Below are positions 4,014 through 50,066 of a stretch of 64,000 nucleotides of DNA, piece after piece. Every line of letters begins with the position of its first letter. The stretch's first letter is position 1. The position numbers were made by a program, and so were the translations under genes. The notes beneath the pieces were generated by a model. It worked only from the letters and a program-made list of their open reading frames with translations. It searched no databases and was not told where the DNA came from. Source of the stretch: Leisingera aquaemixtae (lineage in GTDB: Bacteria; Pseudomonadota; Alphaproteobacteria; Rhodobacterales; Rhodobacteraceae); assembly GCF_019801145.1 (NCBI RefSeq), contig NZ_JAHVJQ010000015.1, positions 1 to 64,000 on the forward strand, given 5' to 3'.

Positions 4014-4027
4014 GTGATCAGGATCAA
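4014..4027 (+). promoter_or_regulatory. FNR-type box (adh)
   Basis: GTGAT-CAGG-ATCAA matches TTGAT-N4-ATCAA at 9 of 10 positions and lies 47 bp before the preferred adh start. Confidence 0.6.
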
Positions 4028-4074
4028 CCCGGGAGCCGCGGGTTTGGGGTATGCTGAACCACGGGAGTCGCAAG

Positions 4075-5019
4075 ATGCGTGCCATGGTGTTCCGCAAAGC
4101 AGGTGAGTCGCTCCGGCTGGAGCACATTGCCCGGCCGGACCCGGGGCCTTGGGACGTGCTGATCCGGGTCGAGGCCTGCGGCGTGTGCCGCACCGATCTC
4201 CATATCGCTGATGGCGACCTGACCGAGGCGGCGGTGCCGCTGATCCCGGGGCATGAGGTTGTCGGCCGCATCGTCGCGGTGGGCAGCAAGGTGGAGGGGC
4301 TGGAGACCGGCCAGCGGGTGGGCGTGCCCTGGCTGGGCGCCACCTGCCGCCGCTGCCGCTATTGCCGGGAGGCGCAGGAGAACCTCTGCGATGCGCCGGT
4401 GTTCACCGGCTACACCCGCAACGGCGGCTTTGCCGAATTCTGCCTGGCCGACGGGCGCTACGTGTTCCGGCTCGACGGGGATGCCGGCCCGGTGCAGCTG
4501 GCGCCGCTGCTGTGCGCCGGGCTGATCGGCTACCGCAGCTACCGGATGGCGGGCGAGGCTGCCAGTCTCGGTCTTTACGGCTTTGGGGCGGCGGCGCATA
4601 TCCTGACCCAGCTGGCGGTCTGGCAGGGCCGCAAGGTGTTTGCGCTGACCCGGCCCGGAGACACCGCGGCGCAGGAGTTTGCCCGCAGCCTGGGCGCGGT
4701 TTGGGCGGGCGGCTCTGATGAGAGGCCGCCGGAGGCGCTGGACGCGGCCATTCTCTTTGCGCCGGTGGGCGGCAGGGTGGTTTGCGGCGGCATTCACATG
4801 AGTGACATTCCGGGCTTTCCCTATGCCGACCTGTGGGGCGAGCGGCATATCCTGTCGGTGGCCAATCTGACCCGGCAGGACGGCGAAGAGTTCCTGCCGC
4901 TGGCGGCTGAGGCCGGTATTGCCACGCAGGGCCGCAGATACGCGCTGGAAGAGGCCAATCAGGCGCTTGCGGACATGCGGCAGGGGCGTTTGCAGGGCGC
5001 CGCGGTGCTGGTTCCCTGA
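4075..5019 (+). CDS. Zinc-dependent alcohol dehydrogenase family protein
   Basis: A medium-chain zinc dehydrogenase of 314 residues, expected to interconvert alcohols and aldehydes with NAD(P). Catalytic-zinc ligands are visible: CGVCRTD (Cys34), GHE (His59, Glu60). The structural-zinc cysteines are Cys92, 95, 98 and 106 in CRRCRYCREAQENLC. A Rossmann motif is present as GLYGFGAAAHI. I chose the ATG at 4075 because GGGAG lies 7 bases before it; an in-frame ATG at 4051 would add 8 residues. An FNR-type box lies upstream, consistent with a fermentative role under oxygen limitation. The substrate is unknown. Confidence 0.88.
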   Translation: MRAMVFRKAGESLRLEHIARPDPGPWDVLIRVEACGVCRTDLHIADGDLTEAAVPLIPGHEVVGRIVAVGSKVEGLETGQRVGVPWLGATCRRCRYCREAQENLCDAPVFTGYTRNGGFAEFCLADGRYVFRLDGDAGPVQLAPLLCAGLIGYRSYRMAGEAASLGLYGFGAAAHILTQLAVWQGRKVFALTRPGDTAAQEFARSLGAVWAGGSDERPPEALDAAILFAPVGGRVVCGGIHMSDIPGFPYADLWGERHILSVANLTRQDGEEFLPLAAEAGIATQGRRYALEEANQALADMRQGRLQGAAVLVP

Positions 5020-5034
5020 TGTTGAGAGGATAAA

Positions 5035-5298
5035 ATGATTGAAAAACAAAAGCTTAACGAGTTGAAGGCGGTCCAGCTGCGGCCTGTGCTGCCATCTGAG
5101 GGGCTGAATTTCGCGCTGACGGACGAGTTGGACGGCGATCCCGGCTGGCTGGGGCAGGACCGGGCGGTGGATGCGATCCGAATGGGGGCGCTGGCCGCTC
5201 ATGAGGATATTTCAGGTGCGCATGAAAGCGAGATGGCCGAGGTCTTTGAGGACGCCCGCACGGCGCTGGAGGCAGCGTGCTGTCCGCTGGTGATTTAA
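5035..5298 (+). CDS. Short protein resembling the N-terminus of Lon-like AAA_32 proteases (likely relic)
   Basis: An 87-residue protein with a Shine-Dalgarno sequence (GAGAGGA) before its ATG, 15 bp after adh. Residues about 11-50 (ELxxxxGWLGQDRAVDAIRMG) resemble the start of Lon-related AAA_32 ATPases, where GQxRAxxAixfG precedes the Walker A region. After residue 55 the match ends and there is no ATPase or protease domain. It is probably the remnant of a larger protease gene shortened by an internal deletion, though a functional small protein cannot be excluded. Confidence 0.5.
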   Translation: MIEKQKLNELKAVQLRPVLPSEGLNFALTDELDGDPGWLGQDRAVDAIRMGALAAHEDISGAHESEMAEVFEDARTALEAACCPLVI

Positions 5299-5340
5299 AG
5301 CTGGGGCTGAGGCGGAGGGGCCGCGGGTCGGCGGGCGGGA

Positions 5341-5414: not shown

Positions 5415-5924
5415 ATGGACACCAACTGCCTGCCAAAAATGGACATGACGGACAACACGACCGGCTGCTGCCCCAAGTTTAACCCGGCAGGATGGGATGG
5501 CCGCAATCTGCATTTCGAAAACAAGCCGTTTGTCCGGGCGAAAACACGCAGTCTTCTGCATTTTCCGCTGAACATGGGAAAAGTCATTTCGCGGGTGCAG
5601 AGGCATATCGAAGACGCCGGCGTGCAGGATCCGGAAGGGTATCTGGTCCTCAGCCGGGATCTGTCCCACGCGGAAGCAGAGCATTTCTTTGCGGTGACCG
5701 GCGGGGTGCCTAATGAAGAAATGACGGAGATTACCGGCGACTTTATCACCCGGGTGTTCGAAGGCCCCTACCGCAGGGCCAAGGACTGGATGCATGACAT
5801 GGAGGTTGCCGCCGAAGCCAGCGGCAAAAACGCGGGGCGCATTTTCATGTTCTATACGACCTGTCCGAAATGTGTCCGGGCGTACGGCAAGAACTATGTC
5901 ATCGGAGTTGCCGAAGTCAGTTAA
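5415..5924 (+). CDS. Conserved protein with CCPKF and TTCPKC cysteine motifs
   Basis: A 169-residue soluble protein of a family often labelled only as hydrolase or hypothetical. It has paired cysteines near the N-terminus (GCCPKFNPAGWDG) and a TTCPKCVRAYGKNY motif near the C-terminus, which suggests metal binding or redox chemistry. The centre (LVLSRDLS, FEGPYRRAKDWMHDM) resembles small-molecule-binding GyrI-like folds, by impression only. The ATG at 5415 follows an AGGGTAGGGG Shine-Dalgarno-like stretch; in-frame ATGs at 5439 and 5445 are alternatives. An FNR box 60 bp upstream makes it part of the island regulon. The function is not known. Confidence 0.75.
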   Translation: MDTNCLPKMDMTDNTTGCCPKFNPAGWDGRNLHFENKPFVRAKTRSLLHFPLNMGKVISRVQRHIEDAGVQDPEGYLVLSRDLSHAEAEHFFAVTGGVPNEEMTEITGDFITRVFEGPYRRAKDWMHDMEVAAEASGKNAGRIFMFYTTCPKCVRAYGKNYVIGVAEVS

Positions 5925-5948
5925 CGATTCACTCTGCAGGAGGTGGCT

Positions 5949-6320
5949 ATGCAAGACCCGGAACTGGAAATTCTCATTGACCGGCTGGAAAATGAGGCGG
6001 ATCTCACCCTGGCGGATTTTGACGGTGTGCTGCATGCGCTGGCCTATTTGCTGCCGGGAGCGGCGCCGGATGACGAACACGCCGCGCAGCACATCGGCAC
6101 CGCGGATGGGGCCATGCATGTGGCCGACGCGGCTTTCCCGGACTGGGACGTGCATATCCGGGGGCGGGCCTATGGCAAGCATGGCCGCTGGCATTGCACC
6201 CTGCGGGAGAACGACAATCTCGACAATGATGCGGCGATCGGCCTGGGACAGTCGCCGGTTTTGGGGCAGGCGATCCTGGCGGCGGTTTTGCGGCTGGCGA
6301 TGATCCTGAAAAAGGACTGA
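5949..6320 (+). CDS. Hypothetical protein
   Basis: A 123-residue protein I do not recognise. The ATG at 5949 is chosen because AGGAGG (5938-5943) sits 5 bases before it; a GTG at 5943 would overlap that ribosome site. The sequence is acidic at the N-terminus (residues 3-20), has a histidine-rich centre, and ends in an alanine/leucine helix with a basic tail (LKKD). It lies 24 bp after the preceding gene and 39 bp before pfkB on the same strand, so it is probably in one transcript driven from the FNR box at 5341. Confidence 0.7.
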   Translation: MQDPELEILIDRLENEADLTLADFDGVLHALAYLLPGAAPDDEHAAQHIGTADGAMHVADAAFPDWDVHIRGRAYGKHGRWHCTLRENDNLDNDAAIGLGQSPVLGQAILAAVLRLAMILKKD

Positions 6321-6359
6321 ACAGGTGCGGCCCGGAGGGGCAGCGGGGAAGGAAGGCTG

Positions 6360-7307
6360 ATGTCCAGAATTTTGACAATCACACTGAACCCCGCTGTCGA
6401 CCTGGCGACGTCGATCGAACGGGTGGCGGCAGGCCCCAAGCTCTATTGCAAGGCGCCGCGGGTGGACCCCGGCGGCGGCGGGGTGAATGCGGCGCGTGCG
6501 ATCCGCAAGCTGGGCGGCCAGGTGACGGCGCTGGTGGCAGTGGGCGGCGCCATGGGGGAGCAGCTGCTGCAGCTGCTGGCGGCTGAGGACGTGCTGGCGC
6601 TGGCAGTCCATGTGGCCGGCGAAACCCGGCAGAGCTTTGCGGTGACGGATGAGACCACCGGCGAGCAGTTCCGCTTCAGCGTTCCCGGTGAGACCATGGA
6701 CAGCGCCGACGGCGCCCGCCTGCTGAGCGCGATCGCGCAGGCCGCGCCGCGGGACGGCTATGCGGTGCTGAGCGGCGGCGTCACGCCTGGGCTGGACGAC
6801 GATTTCCCGCAGCAGGTGCTGGCGGCCGTTGTGCCGCGCCGGTGCAAGCTGGTCGTCGATACCTCCAAGGCGGCGCTGGCGCATCTGCTGGCCGCGCCCG
6901 GCAAGCCGGTGCATGTGCTGCGGCTGGACCAGCGGGAGGCGGAACAGGCGGCGGGGCACGAACTGGCCACGGTGGCGGACAGCCTGGCGTTTGCCCAGGA
7001 CCTGATTGCACGCGGCGTGGCGGATATTGTGGCTGGCGGGCGCGGTGCGGAAGGGTCGGTTCTGGCCACCAGGGACCAGCGGTTTTTCTGCCGCGCGCCT
7101 TATGTTGAAGTGCAGAGCAAGATCGGGGCAGGGGATGCCTTTACCGGCGCGCTGACGCTGGCGCTGTCGCGCGGCGAGGCACTGGATCAGGCGCTGCGCT
7201 GGGGTGTTGCCGCGGCCAGTGCCACGGTTGGCACCGAAGGCACGGCGCTGTTCGGGCGCGGCGAGGTGGAGGCACTGCTGCCGCAGTGCGAGGTAGCGGC
7301 GGCCTAG
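6360..7307 (+). CDS. pfkB: PfkB-type 6-phosphofructokinase / sugar kinase
   Basis: A 315-residue ribokinase-fold kinase, most like 6-phosphofructokinase II and 1-phosphofructokinase. It shows the N-terminal TLNPAVD motif, the glycine motif GGGGVNAARA (about residues 38-47) and the PfkB signature GAGDAFTGA with the catalytic base near Asp259. It would phosphorylate a sugar phosphate with ATP in glycolysis. The gene converges on ppsA: the two stop codons share the bases CTAG at 7304-7307. A glycolytic kinase beside a gluconeogenic synthase suggests switching of carbon flow. Confidence 0.9.
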   Translation: MSRILTITLNPAVDLATSIERVAAGPKLYCKAPRVDPGGGGVNAARAIRKLGGQVTALVAVGGAMGEQLLQLLAAEDVLALAVHVAGETRQSFAVTDETTGEQFRFSVPGETMDSADGARLLSAIAQAAPRDGYAVLSGGVTPGLDDDFPQQVLAAVVPRRCKLVVDTSKAALAHLLAAPGKPVHVLRLDQREAEQAAGHELATVADSLAFAQDLIARGVADIVAGGRGAEGSVLATRDQRFFCRAPYVEVQSKIGAGDAFTGALTLALSRGEALDQALRWGVAAASATVGTEGTALFGRGEVEALLPQCEVAAA

Positions 7308-9685
7308 CTTGCCTTTTCGGCCTCGGCGGCGTTGCGCAGGACCTGCAGGAAACTGTCTGGCGTGACGGAGATGCTGTCGATGCCAAACTCCACCAGGCGG
7401 CGGGCATAACCCGGGTTGTTGCTGGGCGCTTGGCCGCAAAATCCGACCTTGGACTCTGCCTTGTGCGCCTCGCGGATCACCGTTTCGATCATCCACAGCA
7501 CCGCCGGGTCATCCTCGCGGAACAGTTCTGCCAGCGCGTCGGAGTCGCGGTCGATGCCGAGCGTCAGCTGGGTGAGGTCATTGGAGCCGATGGAAAAGCC
7601 GTCGAAGCGTTCGGCAAATTCCGCCGCGCGCAGAACGTTGGAGGGGATTTCGCACATGACGTAGACCTCCAGCCCGTCCTGGCCGCGTTTCAGGCCGTGC
7701 TCTGCCATCACCGCCAGCACCTTGTCGGCCTCCTCGGGCGTGCGGCAGAAGGGGATCATCACGATCACGTTCTTGAAGCCCATCTGGCCGCGCAGCCGGG
7801 CAATCGCCTGGCATTCCAGTGCAAAGCCGTCGCGGTAATCCTCCGAGTAGTAGCGGGAGGCGCCGCGGAAGCCGATCATCGGGTTTTCCTCAGCAGGTTC
7901 AAAGACTTGCCCGCCCAAGAGGTCGGCGTATTCGTTGGTCTTGAAATCGCTCATCCGGATGATCACCGGCTTGGGGTGGCAGAAGGCGGCGATCCGCGAC
8001 AGGCCGCGTGCGAGGCGGTCAACGAAGTATTCGGTCTTGGGGTCATAACCTGCGGTCAGCGCCTCGATTGCGGCGCGGGTTTTTGGGTCGGGCACCTGAT
8101 CGAAGCGCGCCAGCGCCATCGGGTGGACGCGCACCGCGTTGCTGATCACGAATTCCATCCGCGCCAGGCCGACTCCGTCCACCGGCAGCCGCCACCAGCG
8201 CAGCGCAGCGCCGGGGTTGGCGAGGTTGAGCATGATCTGGGTCTTGGGGCGGGGCAGGTCCGAAAGGCTGTCTTCGGTCACGGCGATCTGCGACAGGCCC
8301 GCGGTCACGACGCCCTGTTCGCCGCCTGCGCAGGAGACCGTGACGTCCTGCTGGTCGTGCAGAACCGCGGTGGCATTGCCGCAGCCGACGATGGCGGGCA
8401 GGCCCAGCTCGCGGCTGATGATCGCCGCGTGCGAGGTGCGGCCGCCGTGGTCGGTGACGATGGCGGCCGCCCGTTTCATGACTGGCACCCAGTCGGGGTC
8501 GGTGGTGCCGGTCACCAGCACCGAGCCGTCCACGAAGCGGCTGATGTCCTTGGCGCTTTCTATGATCGACACCCGGCCCGCGACGGCGCCGCTGCCGACG
8601 CTGAGCCCGGTCAGCAGCAACGGGCCGGGATCCGTCACCGCATAGGACCGGAGGGTGCTGATGGCGGCGCGCGACTGGACGGTTTCCGGGCGGGCCTGCA
8701 CGATATAGATCCTGCCGCCGGCCCCGTCCCGGGCCCATTCCATGTCCATCGGGCAGCCATAGTGGTCTTCGATCACCTTGGCCTGGCGGGCCAGCATCAG
8801 GATCTCCGCGTCGCTGAGGACGTATTGCGCCCGCTCGGCTTTGGAAGCGGGGACGTTGCGCGGGCTGCCGTCCCGGTCCTGGATCATCTTGACGGCCTTG
8901 GCGCCCAGCCGCTTTTCCAGGATCGGCGTCAGGCCTGGGGTATCGAGGAAGGGTTTGAAGACCTGGTATTCATCCGGGTCCACGGCACCCTGCACCACGT
9001 TTTCGCCCAGCCCCCAGGCGGCATTGATCAGGACGGCATCGGGAAAGCCGGATTCGGTGTCGATCGAGAACATCACGCCGGCGCCGCCGGTGTCGGCGCG
9101 CACCATCTGCTGCACCCCGACCGACAGCGCTACCTTCATATGGTCGAAGCCGTGGATCCGGCGGTAGGAGATCGCCCGGTCGGTGAACAGCGAGGCATAG
9201 CATTTCCGGCAGGCCTCCAGCAGCGCCTGCCCGCCGCTGACGTTCAGGAAGGTCTCCTGCTGACCGGCAAAGCTCGCCTCCGGCAGGTCCTCGGCAGTGG
9301 CGCTGGAGCGCACCGCGACGGGCACATCCGGCTGTCCTGCCGCGGTGCTGAGGCTGCGGTAATGGGCAAGGATCGCCTGCGCGGTCTTTGCAGGCCAGTC
9401 TCCGGCCAGGATCATGGAGCGGATCGCCTTGCCCGCTTTTTGCAGCGTCGTCCGCCCTGCGGCCAGCGCGTCCAGTTCCTGGTGAATCCGTGCTTCGAGC
9501 TTATTGGCGGACAAGTAGCCGCGGTAGGCATCGGCGGTGGTGGCAAAGCCCGGCGGCACGTGGATCCCCTTGGAGCCAAGCGCCCTGATCATTTCTCCCA
9601 GAGAGGCGTTCTTGCCGCCGACCAGGCCGGTATCGGCGCGTTTCACCTTGTCGAAGCTGATGACGGGCGGGGTGGAATGGGCCAT
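7304..9685 (-). CDS. ppsA: Phosphoenolpyruvate synthase
   Basis: A 793-residue enzyme that makes phosphoenolpyruvate from pyruvate with ATP, AMP and phosphate as the other products. The N-terminal PPDK/PEP-binding domain starts FDKVKRADTGLVGGKNASLGEM. The phosphohistidine loop GGRTSHAA has its His near residue 419, close to the position in E. coli PpsA, and the C-terminal domain has the IGSNDLTQLTLGIDRDS signature. The start at 9685 gives the usual family length and follows GGAGACC. Longer reading frames upstream are not supported. An FNR-type box lies 58 bp upstream. Confidence 0.95.
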   Translation of the reverse strand: MAHSTPPVISFDKVKRADTGLVGGKNASLGEMIRALGSKGIHVPPGFATTADAYRGYLSANKLEARIHQELDALAAGRTTLQKAGKAIRSMILAGDWPAKTAQAILAHYRSLSTAAGQPDVPVAVRSSATAEDLPEASFAGQQETFLNVSGGQALLEACRKCYASLFTDRAISYRRIHGFDHMKVALSVGVQQMVRADTGGAGVMFSIDTESGFPDAVLINAAWGLGENVVQGAVDPDEYQVFKPFLDTPGLTPILEKRLGAKAVKMIQDRDGSPRNVPASKAERAQYVLSDAEILMLARQAKVIEDHYGCPMDMEWARDGAGGRIYIVQARPETVQSRAAISTLRSYAVTDPGPLLLTGLSVGSGAVAGRVSIIESAKDISRFVDGSVLVTGTTDPDWVPVMKRAAAIVTDHGGRTSHAAIISRELGLPAIVGCGNATAVLHDQQDVTVSCAGGEQGVVTAGLSQIAVTEDSLSDLPRPKTQIMLNLANPGAALRWWRLPVDGVGLARMEFVISNAVRVHPMALARFDQVPDPKTRAAIEALTAGYDPKTEYFVDRLARGLSRIAAFCHPKPVIIRMSDFKTNEYADLLGGQVFEPAEENPMIGFRGASRYYSEDYRDGFALECQAIARLRGQMGFKNVIVMIPFCRTPEEADKVLAVMAEHGLKRGQDGLEVYVMCEIPSNVLRAAEFAERFDGFSIGSNDLTQLTLGIDRDSDALAELFREDDPAVLWMIETVIREAHKAESKVGFCGQAPSNNPGYARRLVEFGIDSISVTPDSFLQVLRNAAEAEKAS

Positions 9686-9743
9686 GTCCGGTCTCCGGTC
9701 CTGCAGGGGTAAACCCATAATGGCAGGAATCCGGCGTTGGCCA

Positions 9744-9757
9744 TTGATGCAGATCAG
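9744..9757 (-). promoter_or_regulatory. FNR-type box (ppsA)
   Basis: TTGAT-GCAG-ATCAG, 9 of 10 matches, 58 bp upstream of ppsA. Confidence 0.65.
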
Positions 9758-9806
9758 TGGCCCGGTCCGGCCGCCCCGGGGGCGGCAGCATGGGCGCAGG
9801 CGCGGA

Positions 9807-9820
9807 TTGAGCGGCATCAA
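9807..9820 (+). promoter_or_regulatory. FNR-type box (gerW-like gene)
   Basis: TTGAG-CGGC-ATCAA, 9 of 10 matches, 66 bp upstream of the gerW-like gene. A separate box serves ppsA on the other strand. Confidence 0.65.
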
Positions 9821-9886
9821 TTCACGCAGGAGGGCGGGCTGATAGGCTCGCCCCGTTGACTGTTGCTTTTATGAAAGGTGAGCGGG

Positions 9887-10252
9887 ATGGAAAACGTCGA
9901 ACGTCTGCTGAAAGGCACTGTGGAGGAACTGGACCGGCTGCTGAACGCCAAGAACGTGCTGGGGGATCCGATCGAGAAGGGCGATGCGACGGTCATTCCG
10001 ATTGTCAGCTACGGGTTCGGCTTCGGGGCCGGCGGCGGTGCGGATGCCAAGACCGGCGAAGGTGCGGGCACCGGGGCGGGCGGCGGCATCAAGCCGCTGG
10101 GGGCCATCATCATCGACCAGCGCGGCGCGCGGGTGGAATCTGTGCAGGGGGCGATGACGACGCTGGCGGCGGTGCTGGGCGACGCAGCCGGAAAGGCCAT
10201 TGAAACGGCGGCGCAGACTGGGGGCGCGAAGGGCAGGAAAGGGCAGGGCTGA
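9887..10252 (+). CDS. GerW/YtfJ-family protein
   Basis: A 121-residue member of the GerW (YtfJ) family, named for a Bacillus germination protein but widespread in non-sporing bacteria. It has the family pattern: an N-terminal helix, a central glycine-rich stretch (SYGFGFGAGGG and GAGGGIKPLGAIII, about residues 41-83), then a C-terminal helix. The ATG at 9887 follows AAGGTG by about 7 bases; a GTG at 9878 is an alternative. The next gene, 2 bp on, is a DUF2953 protein. The same two families neighbour each other as ytfJ-ytfI in Bacillus. An FNR-type box lies upstream. The biochemical role is unknown. Confidence 0.85.
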   Translation: MENVERLLKGTVEELDRLLNAKNVLGDPIEKGDATVIPIVSYGFGFGAGGGADAKTGEGAGTGAGGGIKPLGAIIIDQRGARVESVQGAMTTLAAVLGDAAGKAIETAAQTGGAKGRKGQG

Positions 10253-10254
10253 TC

Positions 10255-10794
10255 ATGGCGGGCCTTGGCGCAGCCCTTGCCGCGCTGCTGGCGGTGCTGT
10301 TTGCCCTGATTGTTCTGGTGCTGGTTTCGCCGCTCAGGATCGAGCTGGTGCTGCGCAAGGAGGCGGGGCTGGCCTATTCGGCGGCGCTGCGCCCGCTGGG
10401 CGGGTTCGGGCCGCGGATCAGGCTCTCCGGCAGGCGGCAACCGCACCCTGCGGCCAAAAAGCCAGGCCGCAGGCGGCAGTTCGATGCACGCAGGTTTATC
10501 CCTGCGGCAGCACGGCTGGCAGTTGCAATACTGCGCCGCATCCGCATCCGCGCCCTGATCCTTGACGCGGAATTCGGATCCGGCGATCCGGCGGAGACGG
10601 GGCAGATGTTCGGGATGCTGGCGCCGCTGGCATACGCAACCCTTCCGGCCCGGAGGCTGCAGGTCAGCCTGCAGCCGGTCTTTGACCGTGCGGTGCTGTC
10701 CGGTCGGGCAGAGCTGGACGTTTCCCTGGTTCCGGCGGCGCTGATCGGGCCGGCGGTGCGGTTCGGATGGGACGCCTTCAGGCCGGTGCGGTGA
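10255..10794 (+). CDS. DUF2953-like membrane-anchored protein
   Basis: A 179-residue protein with one N-terminal membrane helix (about residues 4-26, mostly Ala, Leu and Val) and a basic segment at residues 58-76. The rest resembles DUF2953 proteins (YtfI). The start is 2 bp after the GerW stop, so the two are cotranscribed and probably coupled. Pairing of DUF2953 with GerW is known in Firmicutes, which supports the assignment more than sequence similarity does. The function is unknown. Confidence 0.7.
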   Translation: MAGLGAALAALLAVLFALIVLVLVSPLRIELVLRKEAGLAYSAALRPLGGFGPRIRLSGRRQPHPAAKKPGRRRQFDARRFIPAAARLAVAILRRIRIRALILDAEFGSGDPAETGQMFGMLAPLAYATLPARRLQVSLQPVFDRAVLSGRAELDVSLVPAALIGPAVRFGWDAFRPVR

Positions 10795-11060: not shown

Positions 11061-11229
11061 GGCCTTTTTTGCCGTTGCCAAGGCCGGGGCCGGAGCGTTT
11101 CAAGTTGTCAAAGTTGAAGGCAAGACAAGGTAACTTCCGGTCACTGGCCCTGCGCGGTTGATACCGTAAGTGCAGGAAACTGGCTCAGGAGATTGATAAA
11201 GACCGGCGGGCCCATTGATGTGGCAGACC

Positions 11230-12888: not shown

Positions 12889-12933
12889 CAAATCCGGCGC
12901 GCCCCGGCCAGCGCGGCAGCCCTCTGCAGCCGA

Positions 12934-12947: not shown

Positions 12948-12995
12948 AGCGGCGGGGGCGTTCCCGGGGGAACATGGGGCCGGGAGGATGGCATC

Positions 12996-43471: not shown

Positions 43472-43547
43472 CTCATTCATCCTTCAGAGAAACGCGAGTC
43501 ACTCGCAAACACTGCAGCCAATCTTATGGTTCCGGGGGCATAAGGCA

Positions 43548-43561
43548 TTGATAGCCGACAA
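43548..43561 (-). promoter_or_regulatory. FNR-type box (BON gene)
   Basis: TTGAT-AGCC-GACAA, 76 bp upstream of the BON start. The right arm has one mismatch (GACAA). Confidence 0.5.
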
Positions 43562-43649
43562 CGGCGTTCCTGAGGAGGCGGGGCAAAATTCAAAATAATT
43601 ATATATTTTCAGCCCCTTATGCCCTTCCCTCGTGCATTTTAACGCAGGG

Positions 43650-43925
43650 TGCTAGGCGTGTTTCCGCTGGTGCGGATGATTTGGTGGGGCAGGCGGATTG
43701 ATCGGCGAGGATGCAAATGTGAATAACCCCGAGTGCTTCCGTGATCGGTGGTCAAACGTGCCCGGATCAATTGGCCGGGCGTCAGGTGCGACAATTGCCA
43801 GAAGCAGAAATCCGGTCCGAGAACGGTATTCACGACAGGCCTTGGCGACGTTTCCGATTTCCTCAGCATAGGCAAGTACGCGCTTCTTGCATGCGATGCC
43901 GCTCAGAGCTTCTTTGTTCACGCTG
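43650..43925 (-). pseudogene. Transposase N-terminal remnant
   Basis: A GTG-started minus frame begins NKEALSGIACKKRVLAYAEE and GNVAKACREYRS, resembling the helix-turn-helix start of IS481/IS3-type transposases (NVAKTCRxFGIxRxxFYRW). Similarity ends there and the frame closes after about 60 further unrelated residues, without the DDE domain. It marks old insertion activity next to the PHA synthase gene. The exact ends are uncertain. Confidence 0.45.
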
Positions 43926-43944
43926 GTTTCTCCTTCGGCTGCAA

Positions 43945-43962
43945 GACAGATCAAAATCTGTC
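43945..43962. repeat. Inverted repeat upstream of the transposase remnant
   Basis: GACAGAT-CAAA-ATCTGTC has perfect 7-bp arms. The flanks CGGCT and AGCCG extend the stem with a short bulge. It may be a terminator stem or part of an insertion-sequence end. Confidence 0.5.
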
Positions 43963-44103
43963 AGCCGAACTCGGAAACTCCACATTAGCCGGGGTCAGAA
44001 CTGCCACACCCGATCGAAGCCGCTGCCAGTGCCATGGACCTTTATGGGCGGCAGGCCGTCTCCGGCGACAGCGCATTCCAACGCCCCAGGTGTCTTAGAC
44101 TGT

Positions 44104-45903
44104 TTATGGGACGCGCACATAGGCGCCGGGTGCCGAGTAAAGCCTTTTCGGCCGTTTGCTGTCTGTCTTCGATAAGTGCGGTTTCGCCCGCTCGCCCGAG
44201 CGTCCAGCCAGCCATGCTACCCACTCAGGCCACCACGAGCCCTTCTTGGGTTTATGCGATGCAATCCACTCGTCCGGCGGCTGATAGAGCGCGCCGGCAG
44301 GCCGGTGGCCGATCCTGTAGCGTCGGCCGGGATGTCCTGGTTCGCTCAGGATACCGCCGTTGTGTCCGCCTTTCGTCAGGACGAATGTAAGATCGCCGTC
44401 AGTAAACAAGCGCATCTTGAAGACCGACTTCCAGGGCGCGATGTGATCGGTCTCGGTCCCCACAACGAACATCGGCACGCGAATATCCTTGAGCGCCACG
44501 ACCCTGCCTTCGACAGCGAAGCGCCCCGCACTCAACCGGTTTTCAAGAAACAGCCCGCGCAGGTATTCGGAGTGCATCCTGGCAGGCATGCGCGTGGTGT
44601 CATTGTTCCAGACCGTGATGTCGCTAGGCAGGTCGTCTTCGCCCAGAAAATAGCGTCGCACTGCGCGTGAGTAGATCAGATCCTCGGCCCGGATTGAGGT
44701 GAAGGTGCGAGTCATCTGCGGCCGGTCGAGGTAGCCCTGCAGCCACATCAGATCTTCGACGAAGGCGACCTGGCTGTCATCGATGAAAAGCAGGAGTTCG
44801 CCCGCCTCGGCGAAATCGACCTGCGCGGCCATAAAGGTCAGGCTCGCTAATCGGTCGTCCGCATTCCGCGCCATGACGGCCGCTGCGATGGCCAGAAGCG
44901 TCCCGCCAAGGCAGTAGCCATTCACATGGACCTTTCGTTCCGGCAGAATGGACCCGATCACATCGAGCGCCGTCATGATGCCCCTGAGACGGTAATCTTC
45001 AAGCGACAGATCAGCTTGGCCGGCGCCGGGATTGACCCATGAGATCATGAAGACGGTAAAGCCCTGTTCCACGAGGTAGCGCACCATGGAGTTCCTGGGC
45101 GACAGGTCGAGGATGTAAAATTTCATGATCCAAGCCGGGACGAAGAGAACCGGTTCCGGATGCACGAGGTCTGTTGCCGGCTTATACTGTATCAATTCGA
45201 AAAGCTCGTTCCTGAAAACCACGTCGCCTGGTGTGCAGGCCAGGTCCTTGCCGATCTCGAAACCTTCGGGCGCCGGCTTATGGTTTTGCGTCACGGTATG
45301 GTTGAAATCCTCCCAGAAGTGGTGTGATCCTTCGATGATGTTCCGGCCGCCTTCCTTCATCGTCCGTTCGATGATTTCGGGGTTCGACCACGGGAAATTC
45401 GATGGCGAGAAAAGATCAAGGGCCTGGCGCACCTGGAACCGGGCGCGGTCGGCGTCCCGTCTGGCAAGTCCCGGCATCTCTCCCGTTGCCGCTTCCCACC
45501 AGTCCTGGGTCGCAAGGAAGGCCTGTTGCCATACGGAGAAGGGCGCCTTCTTCCAGCCATCGGCCTCGAAGCGGTGATCGAAGCTTCGCGGTTTGAACGG
45601 TGGCGTGCCGGTCAGGTTCGATGCTGACAACCCGACCTTTGCCGCGTTGTTCAATGCCCGCTCCGCCAATTCCAGCTGCCGGCCGGGAGACCTGCTGAGA
45701 TGCAGCGCCCAGTCCATCCAAGTGGCCATGATCGAATGAGGCGACACGCCGGCCGTGACGCGCGCCAAGGCCGCGCGGGTTGCACGGTCCAGCTTTTCAT
45801 AAGGGTGCATAGGCTGCGGTTCTGACGGAGCGGCCACCCGGCAACTTTCAAGCTTGGCAGTTTTCTTTGCTGCCGAAGGGTTCGCTTTGGAGTGTTTGAC
45901 CAT
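44104..45903 (-). CDS. phaC: Poly(3-hydroxyalkanoate) synthase
   Basis: A 599-residue class I-type PHA synthase, polymerising hydroxyacyl-CoA into storage polyester. The lipase-like box GYCLGG has the catalytic cysteine near residue 331. The triad aspartate is in GTETDHIAPW and the histidine in TKGGHNGG. The N-terminal domain (SIMATWMDWALHLSRSPGRQLELA) and the WWEAATG region are standard. The ATG at 45903 is chosen by length and context; a longer frame reaches 45957. No phaA, phaB or phasin gene is adjacent. The nearest FNR-type box is 308 bp upstream. Confidence 0.93.
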   Translation of the reverse strand: MVKHSKANPSAAKKTAKLESCRVAAPSEPQPMHPYEKLDRATRAALARVTAGVSPHSIMATWMDWALHLSRSPGRQLELAERALNNAAKVGLSASNLTGTPPFKPRSFDHRFEADGWKKAPFSVWQQAFLATQDWWEAATGEMPGLARRDADRARFQVRQALDLFSPSNFPWSNPEIIERTMKEGGRNIIEGSHHFWEDFNHTVTQNHKPAPEGFEIGKDLACTPGDVVFRNELFELIQYKPATDLVHPEPVLFVPAWIMKFYILDLSPRNSMVRYLVEQGFTVFMISWVNPGAGQADLSLEDYRLRGIMTALDVIGSILPERKVHVNGYCLGGTLLAIAAAVMARNADDRLASLTFMAAQVDFAEAGELLLFIDDSQVAFVEDLMWLQGYLDRPQMTRTFTSIRAEDLIYSRAVRRYFLGEDDLPSDITVWNNDTTRMPARMHSEYLRGLFLENRLSAGRFAVEGRVVALKDIRVPMFVVGTETDHIAPWKSVFKMRLFTDGDLTFVLTKGGHNGGILSEPGHPGRRYRIGHRPAGALYQPPDEWIASHKPKKGSWWPEWVAWLAGRSGERAKPHLSKTDSKRPKRLYSAPGAYVRVP

Positions 45904-46472
45904 GACTTCTGGTTGCCTAGTGTACGGGAAGGACCGCAAGGCCGGTCCGTCCAGCAAGAATTCGCATGTTGCCGGTCAGCATTTTCTGTCATGCGCGTGA
46001 GTGCTCGCAGATGCCCGTGACGACATTGCCAGAGACATTGCGCCGTCAGAAATGATGGAGAGATGCGAGGACTTTGCGCGCGCTGCCGCAGACAATAGCT
46101 GGCATCTGCCAGGGACAGACTTCCGGTCGGCCCAGACAGGGAAGGTTGCGTTTTTCATAATCGTGATCCCATGCAGTCAAGGGAATGGTAGCCTTTGACC
46201 GCGCGCGCGCCTTGACGGCCATCAATTGTATTCCTGGGTTGCGACGTATCACGAGATTGTTAGGCTGGCCCGTCTGATACAAATGCTGCCAGATTGCCTT
46301 CTTCCTTTGATGCGGAAGGCTTCAAGAGGGTCTCTGCGAGATAAGTACGGGAGGTAAAGAGCCGTTGACCCGGATATGACCACCGGAAGATAACTGTCAG
46401 GCGGGTCACCTCTTTACAAAAAGACCCGGGTTAGATCTCGGCGGGGAACAGCAAACTGGCACCTGATAGAAC
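45904..46472. other. 569-bp gap between phaC and the SLC13 gene
   Basis: It holds the FNR-type box at 46212 but no well-supported gene. A 60-codon minus frame (45976-46158) starts 53 bp from the box with only a weak GGGAT upstream and no recognisable domain. The box could drive phaC through a long leader, or an unannotated small gene. Confidence 0.4.
46212..46225. promoter_or_regulatory. FNR-type box (target unclear)
   Basis: TTGAC-GGCC-ATCAA. It lies 308 bp before phaC on one side and 247 bp before the SLC13 gene on the other. Confidence 0.6.
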
Positions 46473-48239
46473 ATGACTGTCGAAATCATACTGGTTCTGG
46501 CCTTTCTTTCATTGACGATCCTTTTCTTCGCGATGGAGTGGTTGCCGGTCGACGTCGTTACGCTGTCCCTCCTTGCGGCTCTCGTCGTTTCGGGCGTCCT
46601 GACACCTGCCGAGGCTTTCTCCGGTTTCGCGAACGAGATGGTGATCATTCTGGCTTCGGTGTTTGTATTATCCAGCGCTTTAATCAAATCCGGTGTGATG
46701 GAATGGCTTAGCGGCAGCATTCGGAACTTGGGCGGCAAGACGGAATGGCGCGGAATGGGCATGTTGCTGACCATCGCTGCCGCTGCTTCCGCCTTTTTGA
46801 GCAACACGGTTGCAACCGCAATACTTATGCCAGCCGTGCTCCAGATCGCAAGAAACGCACAGGCCAGCCCGAGCCGGTTTCTCATGCCGGTGGCATACGC
46901 TTCGATCCTTGGAGGAGCTTGCACGTTGGTCGGGACGTCGACGAACATCGCGGGAAGCGCCATGGCAGCACAGTTGGGGCTTGAACCGTTCTCAATGTTC
47001 GAATTTCTGGGAATTGGCCTTTTAATGGCGGCCTGCGGCATCGTTTGGCTGGTGTTATTTGGCAGCCGTCTAGTGCCGTCTCGTGCTCCGGTGGAACTTG
47101 AGGATGAATTTGGGAAACCTGATTATCTGTCGGCACTCGTGGTTCCGCCAGGGTCACGTGCCGAGGGGCGGACGATTGGCGAACTCAAGCTAGGGGCGTT
47201 CAATGTGACCGCGCTTGCAGCTGTTCAGGCCGGCAAGCGCCTGCGCCCTCATCACCGGCGCAAGCTGCATGAGGGGGATCTCCTGATTGTGAGAGCTTCG
47301 CGCCAAGACCTGCTTCGCGCCGAAGCGCAACTCGGATTGGTAATTGATGCCACTCAGCATTTCTCCGTGCAGGACCTTCAACCCGAAGAGATCGCTATGG
47401 CAGAGGCGGTTCTGCTGTCGCAATCAAACTTAGTTGGCCGAACCCTGAGACAAATAAATTTTCACCGCAGATACGGTGTCACCGTCGTGGCAATTCACCG
47501 CCCTGGTCACGCCCGGCCGGCCAAGATTGAAAACCTGCGGCTTCAGGTCGGGGATGTTCTTTTGCTGCAAGGCGCACGGGAGGAACTGGAGAACTTGAAG
47601 GGAAACCGCAATCTTTGGGGCCTATTGGAAGTGGAGAGCAGGATCCTCACACATCAGCAAGGAGCGATTGTTATAGGTATAGTAGCAATCGCCGTATTTA
47701 TTGGTGCATCAGGCTTTCTGCCCTTATCGGTTTCGCTGCTGTTGGCTGCGTTGGTGCTTGTCATGGCGCGGTTTGTCACCATGGAAGAAGCGTACCGGTT
47801 CATCGAATGGCGCCTTCTTATTCTAATCGCCGGACTCACCAGTTTTGGAGGGGCCATGGTCAAGACGGGTGCTGCGGCCTATCTGGCGGACTTGATCGTA
47901 AGCGCAACCCTGCCGTTCGGTGTCACTGCCTCCATGGCGGCTTTCGCGGTTCTCACCATCCTTCTAACGCAGCCGATGTCCAACGCGGCAGCCGCATTGA
48001 CGGTGTTACCAGTAGCCACGGCTTCGGCCGAAGCCTTGGGTGTTGATGCGCGATCTCTGGTGGTTCTGGTCACCCTAGCGGCCTCGCTTTCCTTCATCAC
48101 GCCGTTCGAGCCCGCCTGTTTGCTCGTTTATGGACCGGGACGCTACCATTTCCGGGACTTTGTCCGGGCCGGTCTGCCGCTCACAATAATCTGCCTCACT
48201 CTTTTGCTGATACTTGTTCCGGTGTTCTGGCCGCTTTGA
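46473..48239 (+). CDS. SLC13-family permease with TrkA-C domains
   Basis: A 588-residue anion transporter of the SLC13/DASS type (sulfate, di- or tricarboxylates). Helices frame two cytoplasmic TrkA-C-like domains (about residues 210-385; GRTIGELKLGAFNVTALAA, GDLLIVRA, VGRTLRQINFHRRYGVTVVAI). The sodium/substrate motifs SNTVATAILMP, LVGTSTNIA and QPMSNAAAALTVLP are present. The codon and base composition look less GC-biased than neighbouring genes, so recent transfer is possible. The substrate is unresolved; sulfate would fit the sulfur genes elsewhere in the window. Confidence 0.88.
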   Translation: MTVEIILVLAFLSLTILFFAMEWLPVDVVTLSLLAALVVSGVLTPAEAFSGFANEMVIILASVFVLSSALIKSGVMEWLSGSIRNLGGKTEWRGMGMLLTIAAAASAFLSNTVATAILMPAVLQIARNAQASPSRFLMPVAYASILGGACTLVGTSTNIAGSAMAAQLGLEPFSMFEFLGIGLLMAACGIVWLVLFGSRLVPSRAPVELEDEFGKPDYLSALVVPPGSRAEGRTIGELKLGAFNVTALAAVQAGKRLRPHHRRKLHEGDLLIVRASRQDLLRAEAQLGLVIDATQHFSVQDLQPEEIAMAEAVLLSQSNLVGRTLRQINFHRRYGVTVVAIHRPGHARPAKIENLRLQVGDVLLLQGAREELENLKGNRNLWGLLEVESRILTHQQGAIVIGIVAIAVFIGASGFLPLSVSLLLAALVLVMARFVTMEEAYRFIEWRLLILIAGLTSFGGAMVKTGAAAYLADLIVSATLPFGVTASMAAFAVLTILLTQPMSNAAAALTVLPVATASAEALGVDARSLVVLVTLAASLSFITPFEPACLLVYGPGRYHFRDFVRAGLPLTIICLTLLLILVPVFWPL

Positions 48240-48703
48240 ATGCTCCCCTGAACTCCGTTTTTTCGGGTGTATGGGTGCTTTCCGGTGGGCATTTCCGATG
48301 GGCGCGTAAAGGGCCAAGCCGTCTGCGCCAGCCACAGCAGCAGAATTATCGTTCAGGGGGCATCACGCACCGATGGCCGACAGCAGCTCTTCCGGAGCGA
48401 CCGGGCGAGACTTTCATTAATGTAATTTTTGCAAATGCTTATGTCTGATTCACTTGTGCTTCGGCGCGTGTTGCGAAGCCTGTCACTGCTGGTCTGCGCG
48501 GATCAGTGTTTCCGCTGCCGGCGCCACCGCGGTGGAGTTTCCGAAGGACGGATCGGTGCTGGCCGTTCTCATAGCGGCTGGCGGGCGGTCCGGCGCTGCA
48601 ACAAAACCGAGCTGACGGATGGCGCCGCCAGCCAGCGATCCTTACTCAGCGCGGGCAGCTGAGGTTACCCGTCAGGCGAGCCCTGGCGACTTTAAAACGG
48701 GGA
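48240..48703. other. 464-bp stretch without a supported gene
   Basis: Short frames exist (for example 48429-48662) but none has a ribosome site or a family match. An AT-rich patch lies near 48415-48450. No FNR-type box is seen. It may be a decayed region. Confidence 0.4.
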
Positions 48704-49261
48704 TTATCCGGCGCCGGCTAGGGAAACGGCCGTGGCATAGGGGCCTTTTTCACCCTCCATTGCGCGAAACCGGAGCCGCGTGCCCTTAGCAAGCTGGTCC
48801 CACACATCCGCAGTCAGCGCATCCTGCTGAAAGTACACCTCGCGCCCGTCGTCAGCGCGGATGTATCCATAGCCAAGCTCCTTTTCCAGCAGCGAGATGC
48901 AGCCATGCAGCACTGGCGGATGGTGCTTGACCTTAATGGCCGCCATTGTCTTCTTCTGCCGTTTCAGCAGCTTCTCGGCGGCGGAAAACGCCCGGTTCAA
49001 GGCAAGCGCCAAGTCTTCCCTGGCGCTGCCCTTGGCCGATGTCCGGGTTACCGTAATGTCTGGGCCTGGCACACTGAGTGTGAGCCGGACACGGTACTCC
49101 CGTCCGGTAACCTTGCGTTTCTGAGGCGCTTCAATGACGGTTTCGCAACCAACGATCCTGTTGTTGATCCGCTCAAGGGCCTCCACCCGCCTGGCGACCA
49201 GTGCATCCACCGATGGCGAGGGATCGACATTGCGGTATGTTACAACTGGCTCAGTTTGCAT
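48704..49261 (-). CDS. HPF/RaiA-type ribosome-binding protein fused to a cold-shock-like domain
   Basis: A 185-residue protein. Residues about 5-100 look like the ribosome hibernation factor fold (VTYRNVDPSPSVDALVARRVEALERI, RVRLTLSVPGPDITVTR, DLALALNRAFSAAEKLLKRQ). Residues about 125-183 look like a cold-shock domain (LEKELGYGYIRADDGREVYFQQDAL and KGTRLRFRAMEGEKGPYATAV). It may bind ribosomes and RNA in stasis. The start at 49261 follows AAGGGGGT. The C-terminal domain replaces the dimerisation domain of long HPF. Confidence 0.8.
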   Translation of the reverse strand: MQTEPVVTYRNVDPSPSVDALVARRVEALERINNRIVGCETVIEAPQKRKVTGREYRVRLTLSVPGPDITVTRTSAKGSAREDLALALNRAFSAAEKLLKRQKKTMAAIKVKHHPPVLHGCISLLEKELGYGYIRADDGREVYFQQDALTADVWDQLAKGTRLRFRAMEGEKGPYATAVSLAGAG

Positions 49262-49314
49262 TTCGGACCCCCTTTGCAATTTCAGTGTGCCGCTGGATGG
49301 CCGAACACTACTGC

Positions 49315-49593
49315 TCAATAACAGGGCCGGGTGTAGTAGGTTCCGTCTCCGCGCGCGTAGGCGCACCGCCCGGCTGCATTGTTCTGCGCCACCAAAGTTC
49401 CGGCGGCCGCGCCGGCCAGCGCCGCGATCAGCCGCCAATCATCATCTGCCTTCAGCGCATCAGCCGTAATCAGGCCGGCCGCTGCGCCAGCAGTTATTCC
49501 GACAACGGTACGCTGTTCGGGAGTGAGATTTTCGCACGCAGGGAGGAGTCCCAAGGCGATCAGCAAGGATGCAATCCTGTTCTTTAGCCGCAT
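49315..49593 (-). CDS. Glycine-zipper lipoprotein
   Basis: A 92-residue protein with a lipoprotein signal, LLPAC, placing the lipidated cysteine near residue 20. A glycine-zipper stretch follows (VGITAGAAAGLITADAL and LAGAAAGTLVAQ). The C-terminus has CAYARGDGTYYTRPCY with two cysteines that could form a disulfide. The ATG at 49593 follows GGAGGT. It is probably an envelope lipoprotein of the 17-kDa antigen type. The role is unknown. Confidence 0.8.
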   Translation of the reverse strand: MRLKNRIASLLIALGLLPACENLTPEQRTVVGITAGAAAGLITADALKADDDWRLIAALAGAAAGTLVAQNNAAGRCAYARGDGTYYTRPCY

Positions 49594-50066
49594 TTGCTTA
49601 CCTCCAACGTATTTCGCATTTGACCAACGGAACAAAAAATTACTGCAGCGCCGGATTACCCCTGCCGTACGCGGCGCTCCAGCCCCGACATCCTTGCGGC
49701 CGGCTTTCCAGCCCGGCTATGCCGGGGAAGGGAAATCATCGGCACTTCATAGTGTTGGATGAGGGCTGTGGATTGCAGGCCGCCGCAATCCAAACGGACC
49801 TCTTTCGCCGCCGTTGATTGTGAGACACTTTCCGGTCCCTCCTCCTGTCCGGTCTTGGGTCCAGAATGTCCCTTGCCAGTCAGGTGGTCATTGACCGCCG
49901 TCAACCTGAGTTCCCGCAGTCGCGGCGGAAGAACGGCCAGGCGGAGCCGCATGTTGCTGCGCATCAATTCGAGCAGGTCCTTGCTGTGATAAACTTAGAG
50001 TGTGCTGCGGCTGACGCGGACCATTGTGGCGCTAGTGCATATAGCGGGTGAGGGGGCAATGGAGAA
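49594..50066. other. 473-bp gap upstream of groEL
   Basis: No supported gene. It contains the FNR-type box at 49891, 162 bp before groEL. A minus-strand frame (49656-49967) and a plus frame (49759-49989) overlap it but lack ribosome sites and similarity. Confidence 0.4.
49891..49904 (+). promoter_or_regulatory. FNR-type box (groEL)
   Basis: TTGAC-CGCC-GTCAA, symmetric arms, 162 bp before the groEL start. Confidence 0.6.

What the first reader, a model, noticed from the sequence alone, without database searches (positions are those of the whole stretch)
4014..49904. Eighteen FNR-type palindromes spread over 46 kb tie the island into one regulon
Seen: 14-bp palindromes of form TTGAY-N4-RTCAA or close variants at 4014, 5341, 9744, 9807, 12934, 20073, 20113, 24088, 25577, 31333, 32330, 35206, 36419, 37009, 37963, 43548, 46212 and 49891. 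Most stand 45-100 bp before start codons of fermentation, stress, chaperone or protease genes. Known: FNR/ANR/FixK-family regulators bind such sites. Inference: the region is a low-oxygen survival regulon carried on a plasmid. I did not find such boxes in the sox cluster or repABC.
Basis: partly seen in the sequence, partly recalled or inferred. Interest (0 to 1): 0.8.

Follow-up and report, generated by a model that had tools for sequence, protein, structure and literature searches.

The report
Plasmid low-oxygen survival island, two regulators
A marine bacterium's plasmid carries a large set of stress-survival genes whose switches look like those thrown when oxygen runs out, and the set appears to be two neighbouring gene groups, each with its own switch protein, rather than one.

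Summary
All 18 boxes are at the stated places: 7 exact, 9 with one mismatch, 2 with two. Exact matches are 7 against 0.10 expected, and 7 of the genome's 24 places lie in this 64 kb. A matrix built only from other species gives 15 of the 18 at 12 bits or more; simulated windows hold 1.1 such hits. Eight left-half boxes recur, some in variant form, at matching positions on a Leisingera methylohalidivorans plasmid. In 15 of 18 a -10-like hexamer starts 21-22 bases away, against 1.5 for shifted boxes, as in class II FNR promoters.

"One regulon" fits less well. The right half (32-52 kb) has TTGAC-type boxes and an FNR-like protein with four cluster cysteines and helix VETLCR (41649-42530). The left half has boxes with TTAA halves and a second Crp/Fnr protein, without those cysteines, with helix VHVCR (20696-21508). 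Around relatives of the first, boxes are TTGA-only (28 of 28); around relatives of the second, 16 of 26 have a TTAA half. Gene kinds resemble the lxa locus of Burkholderia cenocepacia. The oxygen response is inferred, not shown.

The parts
41649..42530 (+). FNR-like regulator (P0001): C15-x2-C18-x7-C26 plus C114, recognition helix MTVETLCR
   Evidence: Pfam cNMP_binding and HTH_Crp_2; the four cysteines invariant in 3 aligned sequences; N-terminal motif in 12 of 12 and helix in 11 of 12 relatives (the search pattern favoured this helix)
20696..21508 (-). Second Crp/Fnr regulator (P0002), no CxxC motif, recognition helix TAVHVCR
   Evidence: Pfam; sequence; aligned to solved FNR chains with H at the Glu and C at the Ser position
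38847..39560 (+). Response regulator, Response_reg + Trans_reg_C
   Evidence: related gene near P0001 relatives in several loci
39535..41478 (-). Hybrid histidine kinase, PAS + HATPase + receiver
4014..4027 (.). box GTGATCAGGATCAA; TATGCT at gap 22 towards the ADH gene
   Evidence: (9.25 bits); also in the copy on contig C10
5341..5354 (.). box TTGATGGAGATCAT; TAGACT at gap 21 towards hydrolase 5415
   Evidence: conserved in L081 and L082
9744..9757 (.). box TTGATGCAGATCAG; CATTAT at gap 21 towards PpsA
   Evidence: identical core in L081, lost or merged in L082
9807..9820 (.). box TTGAGCGGCATCAA; TAGGCT at gap 22 towards GerW 9878
   Evidence: identical core in L081, one merged box in L082
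12934..12947 (.). box TTGATGCGTATCAT upstream of acetate-CoA ligase
   Evidence: one change in L081, more in L082
20073..20086 (.). box TTGACACCGGTCAA between USP and CBS genes
   Evidence: variant forms in L081 and L082; no hexamer meeting the -10 criterion
20113..20126 (.). box TTAACGCCGGTTAA (TTAA/TTAA class) upstream of the CBS gene
   Evidence: (variant forms in L081 and L082)
24088..24101 (.). box TTGACGCCCATTAA; GATCCT at gap 22 towards DUF2267 24161
25577..25590 (.). box TTGCTTGGCATCAA; TAGGCT at gap 22 towards the USP gene on the - strand
   Evidence: not conserved in L082, which has another box-like site nearby
31333..31346 (.). box TTGACGGCGGTTAA; TCAAAT at gap 22 towards sulfite oxidase
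   Evidence: box in variant form and TCAAAT kept in L081, L082 and L083
32330..32343 (.). box TTGCGCCCCATCAA; GAAAAT at gap 21 towards the helix-hairpin-helix gene
35206..35219 (.). box TTGACGCGGGTCAA; CATAAT at gap 21 towards SPW gene 35262
36419..36432 (.). box TTGACAGCCGTCAA; AATACT at gap 22 towards the SHOCT gene
37009..37022 (.). box TTGACAGCCATCAA; CAGAAT at gap 21 towards the CBS gene
37963..37976 (.). box TTGACCGCCATCAA; CATAAT at gap 22 towards HSP20
42527..42540 (.). unlisted box ATGACCTCTGTCAA at the end of the regulator gene, TAGAGT at gap 22
   Evidence: (11 bits); similar box just after the regulator in L084 and L090-L092
43548..43561 (.). box TTGATAGCCGACAA; TAAGAT at gap 21 towards the BON gene
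46212..46225 (.). box TTGACGGCCATCAA upstream of phaC; TACCAT at gap 21 on the - side
   Evidence: target start codon unclear
49891..49904 (.). box TTGACCGCCGTCAA; CATTCT at gap 22 on the - side
   Evidence: no clear target
5415..31619 (.). Left block: hydrolase, PfkB, PpsA, GerW, Na/Pi symporter, acetate-CoA ligase, PDH E1/E2, three USPs, CBS, P0002, GATase, DUF2267, DUF6691, beta-CASP MBL, sulfite oxidase
   Evidence: collinear with gaps on two Leisingera plasmids
32798..51690 (.). Right block: Lon, SPW, SHOCT, DUF3775, CBS, host-attachment, HSP20, RR, HK, P0001, BON, PhaC, CitMHS transporter, HPF-CSD, GroEL
   Evidence: similar order in Roseovarius confluentis L084, parts elsewhere

Best explanation
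The boxes are operators of FNR-family activators. In most of these promoters the box centre is near -41.5, so that the dimer touches RNA polymerase (class II). The plasmid carries two adjoining survival regulons. Right block: P0001, an FNR-like protein with a predicted [4Fe-4S] cluster, keeps its cluster when oxygen falls, dimerises, binds GCATTGACNGCCRTCAATGC-like boxes and turns on the SPW, SHOCT, CBS, HSP20 and BON genes and perhaps phaC. Left block: P0002, a Crp/Fnr protein without the cluster cysteines, binds boxes in which one or both halves may be TTAA and turns on USP, CBS, DUF2267 and sulfite oxidase genes. The chromosomal FnrL-like protein may act on either block. Shown here: the boxes, their conservation, the promoter geometry, and the association of each box class with each regulator class. 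Inferred: binding, the signal (oxygen), and the survival role.
For: Enrichment. Conservation: 5341, 12934, 20073, 20113, 24088 and 31333 recur, in like or variant form, in both comparison plasmids, 9744 and 9807 in one. -10-like hexamers: 15 flanks at gap 21 and 34 at gap 22 (48 distinct of 151), against 0-7 at each other gap from 8 to 49; 15 of 18 listed boxes, against a mean of 1.5 and maximum of 6 in 54 shifted controls. Box class by regulator, near-duplicates removed: 28 TTGA/TTGA and 0 TTAA-containing around P0001 relatives, 10 and 16 around P0002 relatives, Fisher 2.5e-7. In 11 genomes with P0001 relatives, 25 of 37 TTGAYNGYCRTCAA places lie within 20 kb of the regulator gene (0.8% of sequence), at least one in each genome; the Nitrobacter genome, whose relative lacks the helix, has none. 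Cysteines and helix. Published: Pseudomonas putida PP_3287, also Cys for Ser in the helix, is a [4Fe-4S] FNR; binding to the FNR box is given there as preliminary (PMC4505428, passages).
Against: No expression, binding or oxygen data were available. Close relatives (three Leisingera, two Thioclava) are not independent, so the P-values overstate. The pattern was loosened using sites from the same loci. One of the two search patterns was the helix itself, so the uniform VETLCR there is partly selection; of five relatives found without it, two at about 39% identity have VETLCR and three at 26-29% have VETVSR-type IETVSR. Three of 18 boxes (20073, 20113, 31333) fail the -10 criterion. 25577 is not conserved in L082. 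Dinoroseobacter FnrL and DnrD use a TTAAC-N4-GTCAA box (PMC5398030), so a TTAA half does not by itself point to P0002. P0002 loci also hold 10 TTGA/TTGA boxes, and 1 of 12 has no box. Boxes 5341, 9744 and 12934 fit neither class well. Lon, the first gene of the right block, has no listed box directly before it. Across 248 family genomes strict TTGACNGCCRTCAA occurs in 74, only 3 of them among the 6 with a P0001 hit; G239 has a 39% relative but no strict box.
Confidence: 0.68

Rival explanations
1. All boxes are read by the chromosomal FnrL-like protein (C5; CGDCPIRHRAVC, helix LETVSR); P0001 and P0002 are minor or act elsewhere, so that the island is a plasmid annex of the ordinary FnrL regulon.
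For: Half-sites match the FNR box. Dinoroseobacter FnrL controls USP and cold-shock genes and uses TTGA and TTAA variants (PMC5398030 passages). An open FnrL-like frame is present in this genome (named from motifs only).
Against: Spacers differ: 0 of the 7 exact island boxes begin the spacer with CT, 8 of the 17 others in the genome do (counted). Exact TTGACNGCCRTCAA is found only in the island in this genome, and the related form clusters around P0001 relatives. TTAA-containing boxes cluster with P0002 relatives.
Confidence: 0.2
2. One regulon: P0001 reads all boxes in both blocks; the TTAA halves are drift.
For: The matrix trained on P0001 loci scores 24088 and 31333 at 20-23 bits. Both blocks share CATT...AATG flanks at several boxes. 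L. aquaemixtae, which has the left block on a plasmid (strain S166), has a P0001 relative elsewhere in its genome (strain CECT 8399, L090), so action from afar is possible.
Against: No TTAA-containing box in 215 kb around P0001 relatives. The left block with its boxes stands on L. aquaemixtae and L. methylohalidivorans plasmids with one annotated Crp/Fnr gene in each stretch read, the P0002 orthologue (that gene table is incomplete). TTAA halves at 20113, 24088 and 31333 are kept between species.
Confidence: 0.2
3. Chance or compositional palindromes in a GC-rich plasmid.
For: One-mismatch hits do occur by chance (3.8 expected), and some hits lie inside genes (34784, 43068).
Against: Shuffles, simulated sequence, native controls, conservation and -10 spacing.
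Confidence: 0.01

Closest known systems
Low-oxygen-activated (lxa) locus of Burkholderia cenocepacia, BCAM0275-BCAM0323
   Same: About 50 genes in one place; USPs, HSP20, BON, Zn-alcohol dehydrogenase, a 51-kDa metallo-beta-lactamase protein, phosphofructokinase and a PHB-pathway gene (PMC6127331 passages and section 7); an Anr-like protein, BCAM0049, was proposed as oxygen sensor.
   Different: Here on a repABC plasmid of a roseobacter, with two Crp/Fnr genes inside the cluster (BCAM0049 is outside lxa by its number); PDH E1/E2, acetate-CoA ligase and sulfite oxidase are not in the table read. The PHB gene here is phaC, there phbB. Gene-by-gene homology was not tested.
PP_3287 of Pseudomonas putida (FNR with Cys for Ser in the recognition helix)
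   Same: Four cluster cysteines and Cys in place of Ser-212 (PMC4505428 passages).
   Different: The passages read do not describe an island or box set; C-x2-C-x7-C spacing here. No direct sequence comparison was made.
FnrL/DnrD/DnrE/DnrF network of Dinoroseobacter shibae
   Same: Several Crp/Fnr regulators in a marine Rhodobacterales member; boxes at -39.5/-41.5 including a TTAAC half; USP genes controlled by FnrL; 73.58% of DnrE-specific genes on plasmids (PMC5398030 passages).
   Different: Described there as one cascade for the aerobic-anaerobic shift; here each block carries its own regulator. P0001 scores 74 bits against the FnrL model with a cut-off of 300.
FnrN-controlled small heat shock gene rlv_1399 of Rhizobium leguminosarum
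   Same: HSP20 gene with an FNR-type box, about 50-fold induced at low oxygen and FnrN-dependent (PMC11784457 passages).
   Different: A single gene, not an island.
DosR dormancy regulon of Mycobacterium tuberculosis
   Same: USPs, alpha-crystallin and phosphofructokinase induced by hypoxia (as compared with lxa in PMC6127331).
   Different: Other regulator and box (recalled); analogy only.

Membership tests
FNR (oxygen-sensing, [4Fe-4S]) for P0001 | Crp/Fnr fold: cNMP-binding plus HTH_Crp domain | tested here: met
FNR (oxygen-sensing, [4Fe-4S]) for P0001 | Three N-terminal cysteines plus a central one | tested here: met
   C15, C18, C26, C114 invariant in 3 sequences; N-terminal motif in 12 of 12 relatives
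FNR (oxygen-sensing, [4Fe-4S]) for P0001 | Recognition helix with E..SR | tested here: not met
   ETLCR, Cys for Ser, in P0001 and in 11 of 12 relatives. The same change occurs in PP_3287, a studied FNR, so this lowers 'canonical FNR', not 'works like FNR'
FNR (oxygen-sensing, [4Fe-4S]) for P0001 | Cluster assembly and oxygen response | not testable with these tools
   bench work
FnrL equivalog (NF045989) | Score above the curated cut-off of 300 | tested here: not met
   P0001 74 bits, P0002 69.5 bits
FNR (oxygen-sensing, [4Fe-4S]) for P0002 | N-terminal cluster cysteines | tested here: not met
   no CxxC in the sequence
Class II FNR-type promoter | Box about 22 bases from the -10 hexamer | tested here: met
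   15 of 18 boxes; 48 distinct of 151 flanks
Class II FNR-type promoter | Transcription start 41-42 bases from the box centre | not testable with these tools
   no RNA data
lxa-type locus | Clustered USPs, HSP20, BON, MBL-fold protein, PfkB, ADH, PHB-pathway gene | tested here: met
   gene kinds present against the published table; homology to the BCAM genes not compared
lxa-type locus | Induction at low oxygen and loss of anoxic survival on deletion | not testable with these tools
   no expression or phenotype data
repABC plasmid | repC beside repA and repB | tested here: met
   RP-C and RP-C_C at 2726-3979; the two preceding ORFs were not scanned against Pfam, but parts of 714-1870 match repA/repB of plasmid L083 at 68-71%

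The most novel reading that the evidence does not exclude
Two Crp/Fnr proteins on one plasmid divide an island between them by one change in the recognition helix: Glu (VETLCR) keeps the G of TTGAC, while His at the same place (VHVCR) lets in A, giving TTRAC boxes. Each block travels with its own reader and box alphabet, and the plasmid is a fusion of two such self-addressed survival modules.
Probability: 0.35. Interest if true: 0.6.

Novelty: new variant of a known kind. Interest (0 to 1): 0.5.

Why it matters
If true, a survival programme like that studied in Burkholderia, and by analogy in mycobacterial dormancy, is carried as plasmid modules in marine roseobacters, each with its own FNR-type regulator and box variant. 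It gives a natural test of how Crp/Fnr recognition helices and box half-sites change together, and gives matrices with which such regulons can be sought elsewhere.

Tried and rejected
Strict TTGACNGCCRTCAA as a marker of P0001 across 248 family genomes fails: 74 genomes have it, 6 have a P0001 hit at 1e-20 or better (own genome included), 3 have both. Clustering near the gene is what counts. G048 (12 hits within about 2 kb) and G166 (86 hits) look like unrelated repeats and were not followed. Rfam (gathering thresholds) and tRNA scans of the window gave nothing. Megablast of window 19.0-64.0 kb against plasmids found no collinear relative of the right block; 1-19 kb was not sent. The simple codon-usage gene caller missed several genes, so gene calls rest on Pfam hits and annotated orthologues. 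The distant hits L048-L050 (26-29%) were left out of the box counts; their helix is IETVSR. For P0002 I took the 12 best hits outside the own genome, out of 65 genomes with hits. Paper searches listed no account of this island in Leisingera; the library lacks most subscription papers, so that is weak evidence of novelty. No structure prediction was run.
Full report
WHAT WAS CHECKED. All 18 14-mers are at the stated coordinates. Seven match TTGAYN4RTCAA exactly, nine have one mismatch, two have two. In the genome (4,877,391 bases, 50 contigs; the window is C15:1-64000) there are 24 exact places, 7 of them in this window (1.3% of the genome), and 5 for the pattern read backwards. The narrower form TTGACNGCCRTCAA occurs five times, all at 36-50 kb of C15. 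Twelve of 18 boxes have an in-frame start codon 49-101 bases from the box centre (starts chosen by eye).

HELD-OUT MATRIX. I took 32 distinct exact sites, five flanking bases each side, from loci around relatives of the regulator in other genomes (10 of 11 loci gave distinct sites; the window was not used). Twenty simulated windows give a mean of 1.1 (maximum 3), and 69,327 bases of 22 other loci of the same genome, taken around Crp-type genes, give 1. All 18 listed sites are within the 22 best; 4014, 12934 and 20113 score 9-10 bits. A scan of the whole genome with a model of the same sites gives 9 places at E up to 10; 6 of the best 7 are in C15 at 35-50 kb. Only 150 of 3732 first-look candidates were scored there.

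CONSERVATION. The left block (about 5.3-31.4 kb) is collinear, with gaps, with plasmids of Leisingera methylohalidivorans (L081) and L. aquaemixtae (L082), at 72-91% identity over the aligned pieces. Boxes 5341, 12934, 20073, 20113, 24088 and 31333 recur at the matching places in both, in like or variant form; 31333 also in L. thetidis (L083). 9744 and 9807 recur in L081 and are reduced to one box in L082. 25577 is not conserved in L082; 4014, 32330 and the right-block boxes were not in these alignments. Flanks recur too: CATT before and AATGC after the core at 24088, GCATT before it at 31333.

PROMOTER GEOMETRY. For 90 sites of 13 bits or more in the window and 15 other loci, I took both flanks and removed near-duplicates, leaving 151. 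A hexamer with A2, T6 and at least three matches to TATAAT starts 21 bases after the box in 15 flanks and 22 bases after in 34 (48 distinct flanks); other gaps from 8 to 49 give 0 to 7. By the usual numbering (recalled) that is the place of the -10 when the box centre is at about -41.5. Of the 18 listed boxes, 15 have such a hexamer on one side or the other; boxes shifted by 4-30 bases give a mean of 1.5 and a maximum of 6 in 54 trials. Those that fail are 20073, 20113 and 31333. For 31333 the sequence TCAAAT at gap 22 towards sulfite oxidase is kept in four species. Targets in the parts list come from these hexamers and the nearest gene.

TWO REGULATORS. The window has two Crp/Fnr genes (both found again in the own-genome scan). 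P0001 (41649-42530) has C15-x2-C18-x7-C26 and C114 and helix MTVETLCR. P0002 (20696-21508, minus strand) has no CxxC and helix TAVHVCR; the alignment to solved FNR chains puts His where FNR has Glu and Cys where it has Ser. A chromosomal FnrL-like protein has CGDCPIRHRAVC and helix LETVSR. A genome-collection scan gave 12 relatives of P0001, 11 from genera of the Rhodobacterales (placement recalled for most) and one Nitrobacter. The 11 have VETLCR and the cysteine motif; Nitrobacter has the motif but not the helix. One of the two search patterns was this helix, so the uniformity is partly selection. Among the five relatives that a plain protein search found in 247 other family genomes, two at about 39% identity have ETLCR and three at 26-29% have ETVSR; one of the two (L047) appears to be the same locus as L088. 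Several relatives sit among Lon, SPW, CBS, host-attachment protein, HSP20, response regulator, kinase, BON and HPF genes; Roseovarius confluentis is the most complete.

BOX CLASS GOES WITH REGULATOR CLASS. In 215 kb around the 11 P0001 relatives there are 38 TTGA/TTGA boxes and none with a TTAA half. In 209 kb around the 12 best P0002 hits outside the own genome (11 genomes, 36-50% identity) there are 10 TTGA/TTGA, 10 mixed and 6 TTAA/TTAA, against at most 0.7 expected for any class; one of the 12 loci has no box. Without near-duplicates: 28 and 0 against 10 and 16, Fisher 2.5e-7; 11 of the 16 TTAA-containing boxes have a -10-like hexamer at gap 21-22, against about 1.6 at other gaps. All 12 P0002 relatives have VHVCR. 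A CBS gene related to that at 20110 lies beside P0002 in 9 of 12 loci, and in 5 of those 9 a TTAA-containing box lies just upstream of it (read), as box 20113 does here. In the window the left block has 1 TTGA/TTGA, 2 mixed and 1 TTAA/TTAA exact box, the right block 6, 0 and 0, and 1-4 and 52-64 kb none. In the 11 genomes with P0001 relatives, 25 of 37 TTGAYNGYCRTCAA places lie within 20 kb of the regulator gene, in 0.8% of the sequence, with at least one in each genome; Nitrobacter has none (regulator contigs matched by position). That pattern was loosened using some of the same loci, and some genomes are close kin, so the P-value is not to be taken at face value.

RESULTS AGAINST. Over 248 family genomes the strict box occurs in 74, only 3 of which are among the 6 with a P0001 hit, and one genome with a 39% relative lacks the strict box. 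Dinoroseobacter shibae FnrL and DnrD use a TTAAC-N4-GTCAA box (PMC5398030, passages), so TTAA halves are not proof of P0002. The own genome has 13 places with a TTRA/TTAA box, of which 3 are in C15 and 3 in C10 beside the second P0002 copy. Boxes 5341, 9744 and 12934 fit neither class well. Boxes 46212 and 49891 have no clear target, and Lon has no listed box directly before it.

COMPARISON. The gene kinds match the lxa locus of Burkholderia cenocepacia as tabulated in PMC6127331 (passages and section 7); the original paper is not held. Pseudomonas putida PP_3287 shares the Cys-for-Ser helix and is a [4Fe-4S] FNR that reacts slowly with oxygen (PMC4505428, passages). Control of an HSP20 gene by an FNR-type protein through such a box is known in Rhizobium leguminosarum (PMC11784457, passages). 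I also read passages of PMC3759415 and PMC5934665. So the kind is known; the plasmid form, the two built-in regulators and the paired box classes are what seems new, as far as eight paper searches in this library tell.

CONFIDENCE BY STEP. Boxes are functional FNR-family operators: about 0.9. P0001 responds to oxygen through a cluster: about 0.75. P0002 governs the left block: about 0.5. The His/Glu change explains the half-site: about 0.35.

Noticed in passing
window 1-119 and L128 10742-10860 (C15:74742-74860): The two ends of the contig carry the same 119 bases in inverted orientation, 100% identical; a repeat, such as a mobile element end, may have broken the assembly there.
   Followed up: no
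window 50067-50372 and 50314-51690: GroEL looks split over two overlapping reading frames: the second ORF matches the family only from about position 96, and the first ORF reads by eye like the missing part. Either a disrupted gene or a sequencing error.
   Followed up: no
window 19098-21502 and 4009-5208; contig C10 8754-11131 and 3924-5162: A second copy of the USP-box-box-CBS-Crp block (82% identical) and of the box 4014-ADH stretch (95%) stands on contig C10 of the same genome.
   Followed up: partly
window 20087-20270, L081 16949-17503, L082 18394-18948: In two other Leisingera plasmids an HSP20 gene lies between the box pair and the CBS gene; here there is no room for it, so the boxes now stand directly before the CBS gene.
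   Followed up: partly
window 53951-58599: AMP/thymidine phosphorylase-like enzyme, ribose-phosphate diphosphokinase and FtsH in a row, next to the island but without exact boxes.
   Followed up: no
L128 1108 and 6624 (C15 about 65108 and 70624); L129 406 (C30): Further box-like sites outside the window, at 13.9, 12.1 and 17.7 bits; their neighbours were not looked at.
   Followed up: no
G048:C3 1834-3645 and G166 (many contigs): Family genomes with 12 and 86 hits of TTGACNGCCRTCAA, probably inside unrelated repeats.
   Followed up: no
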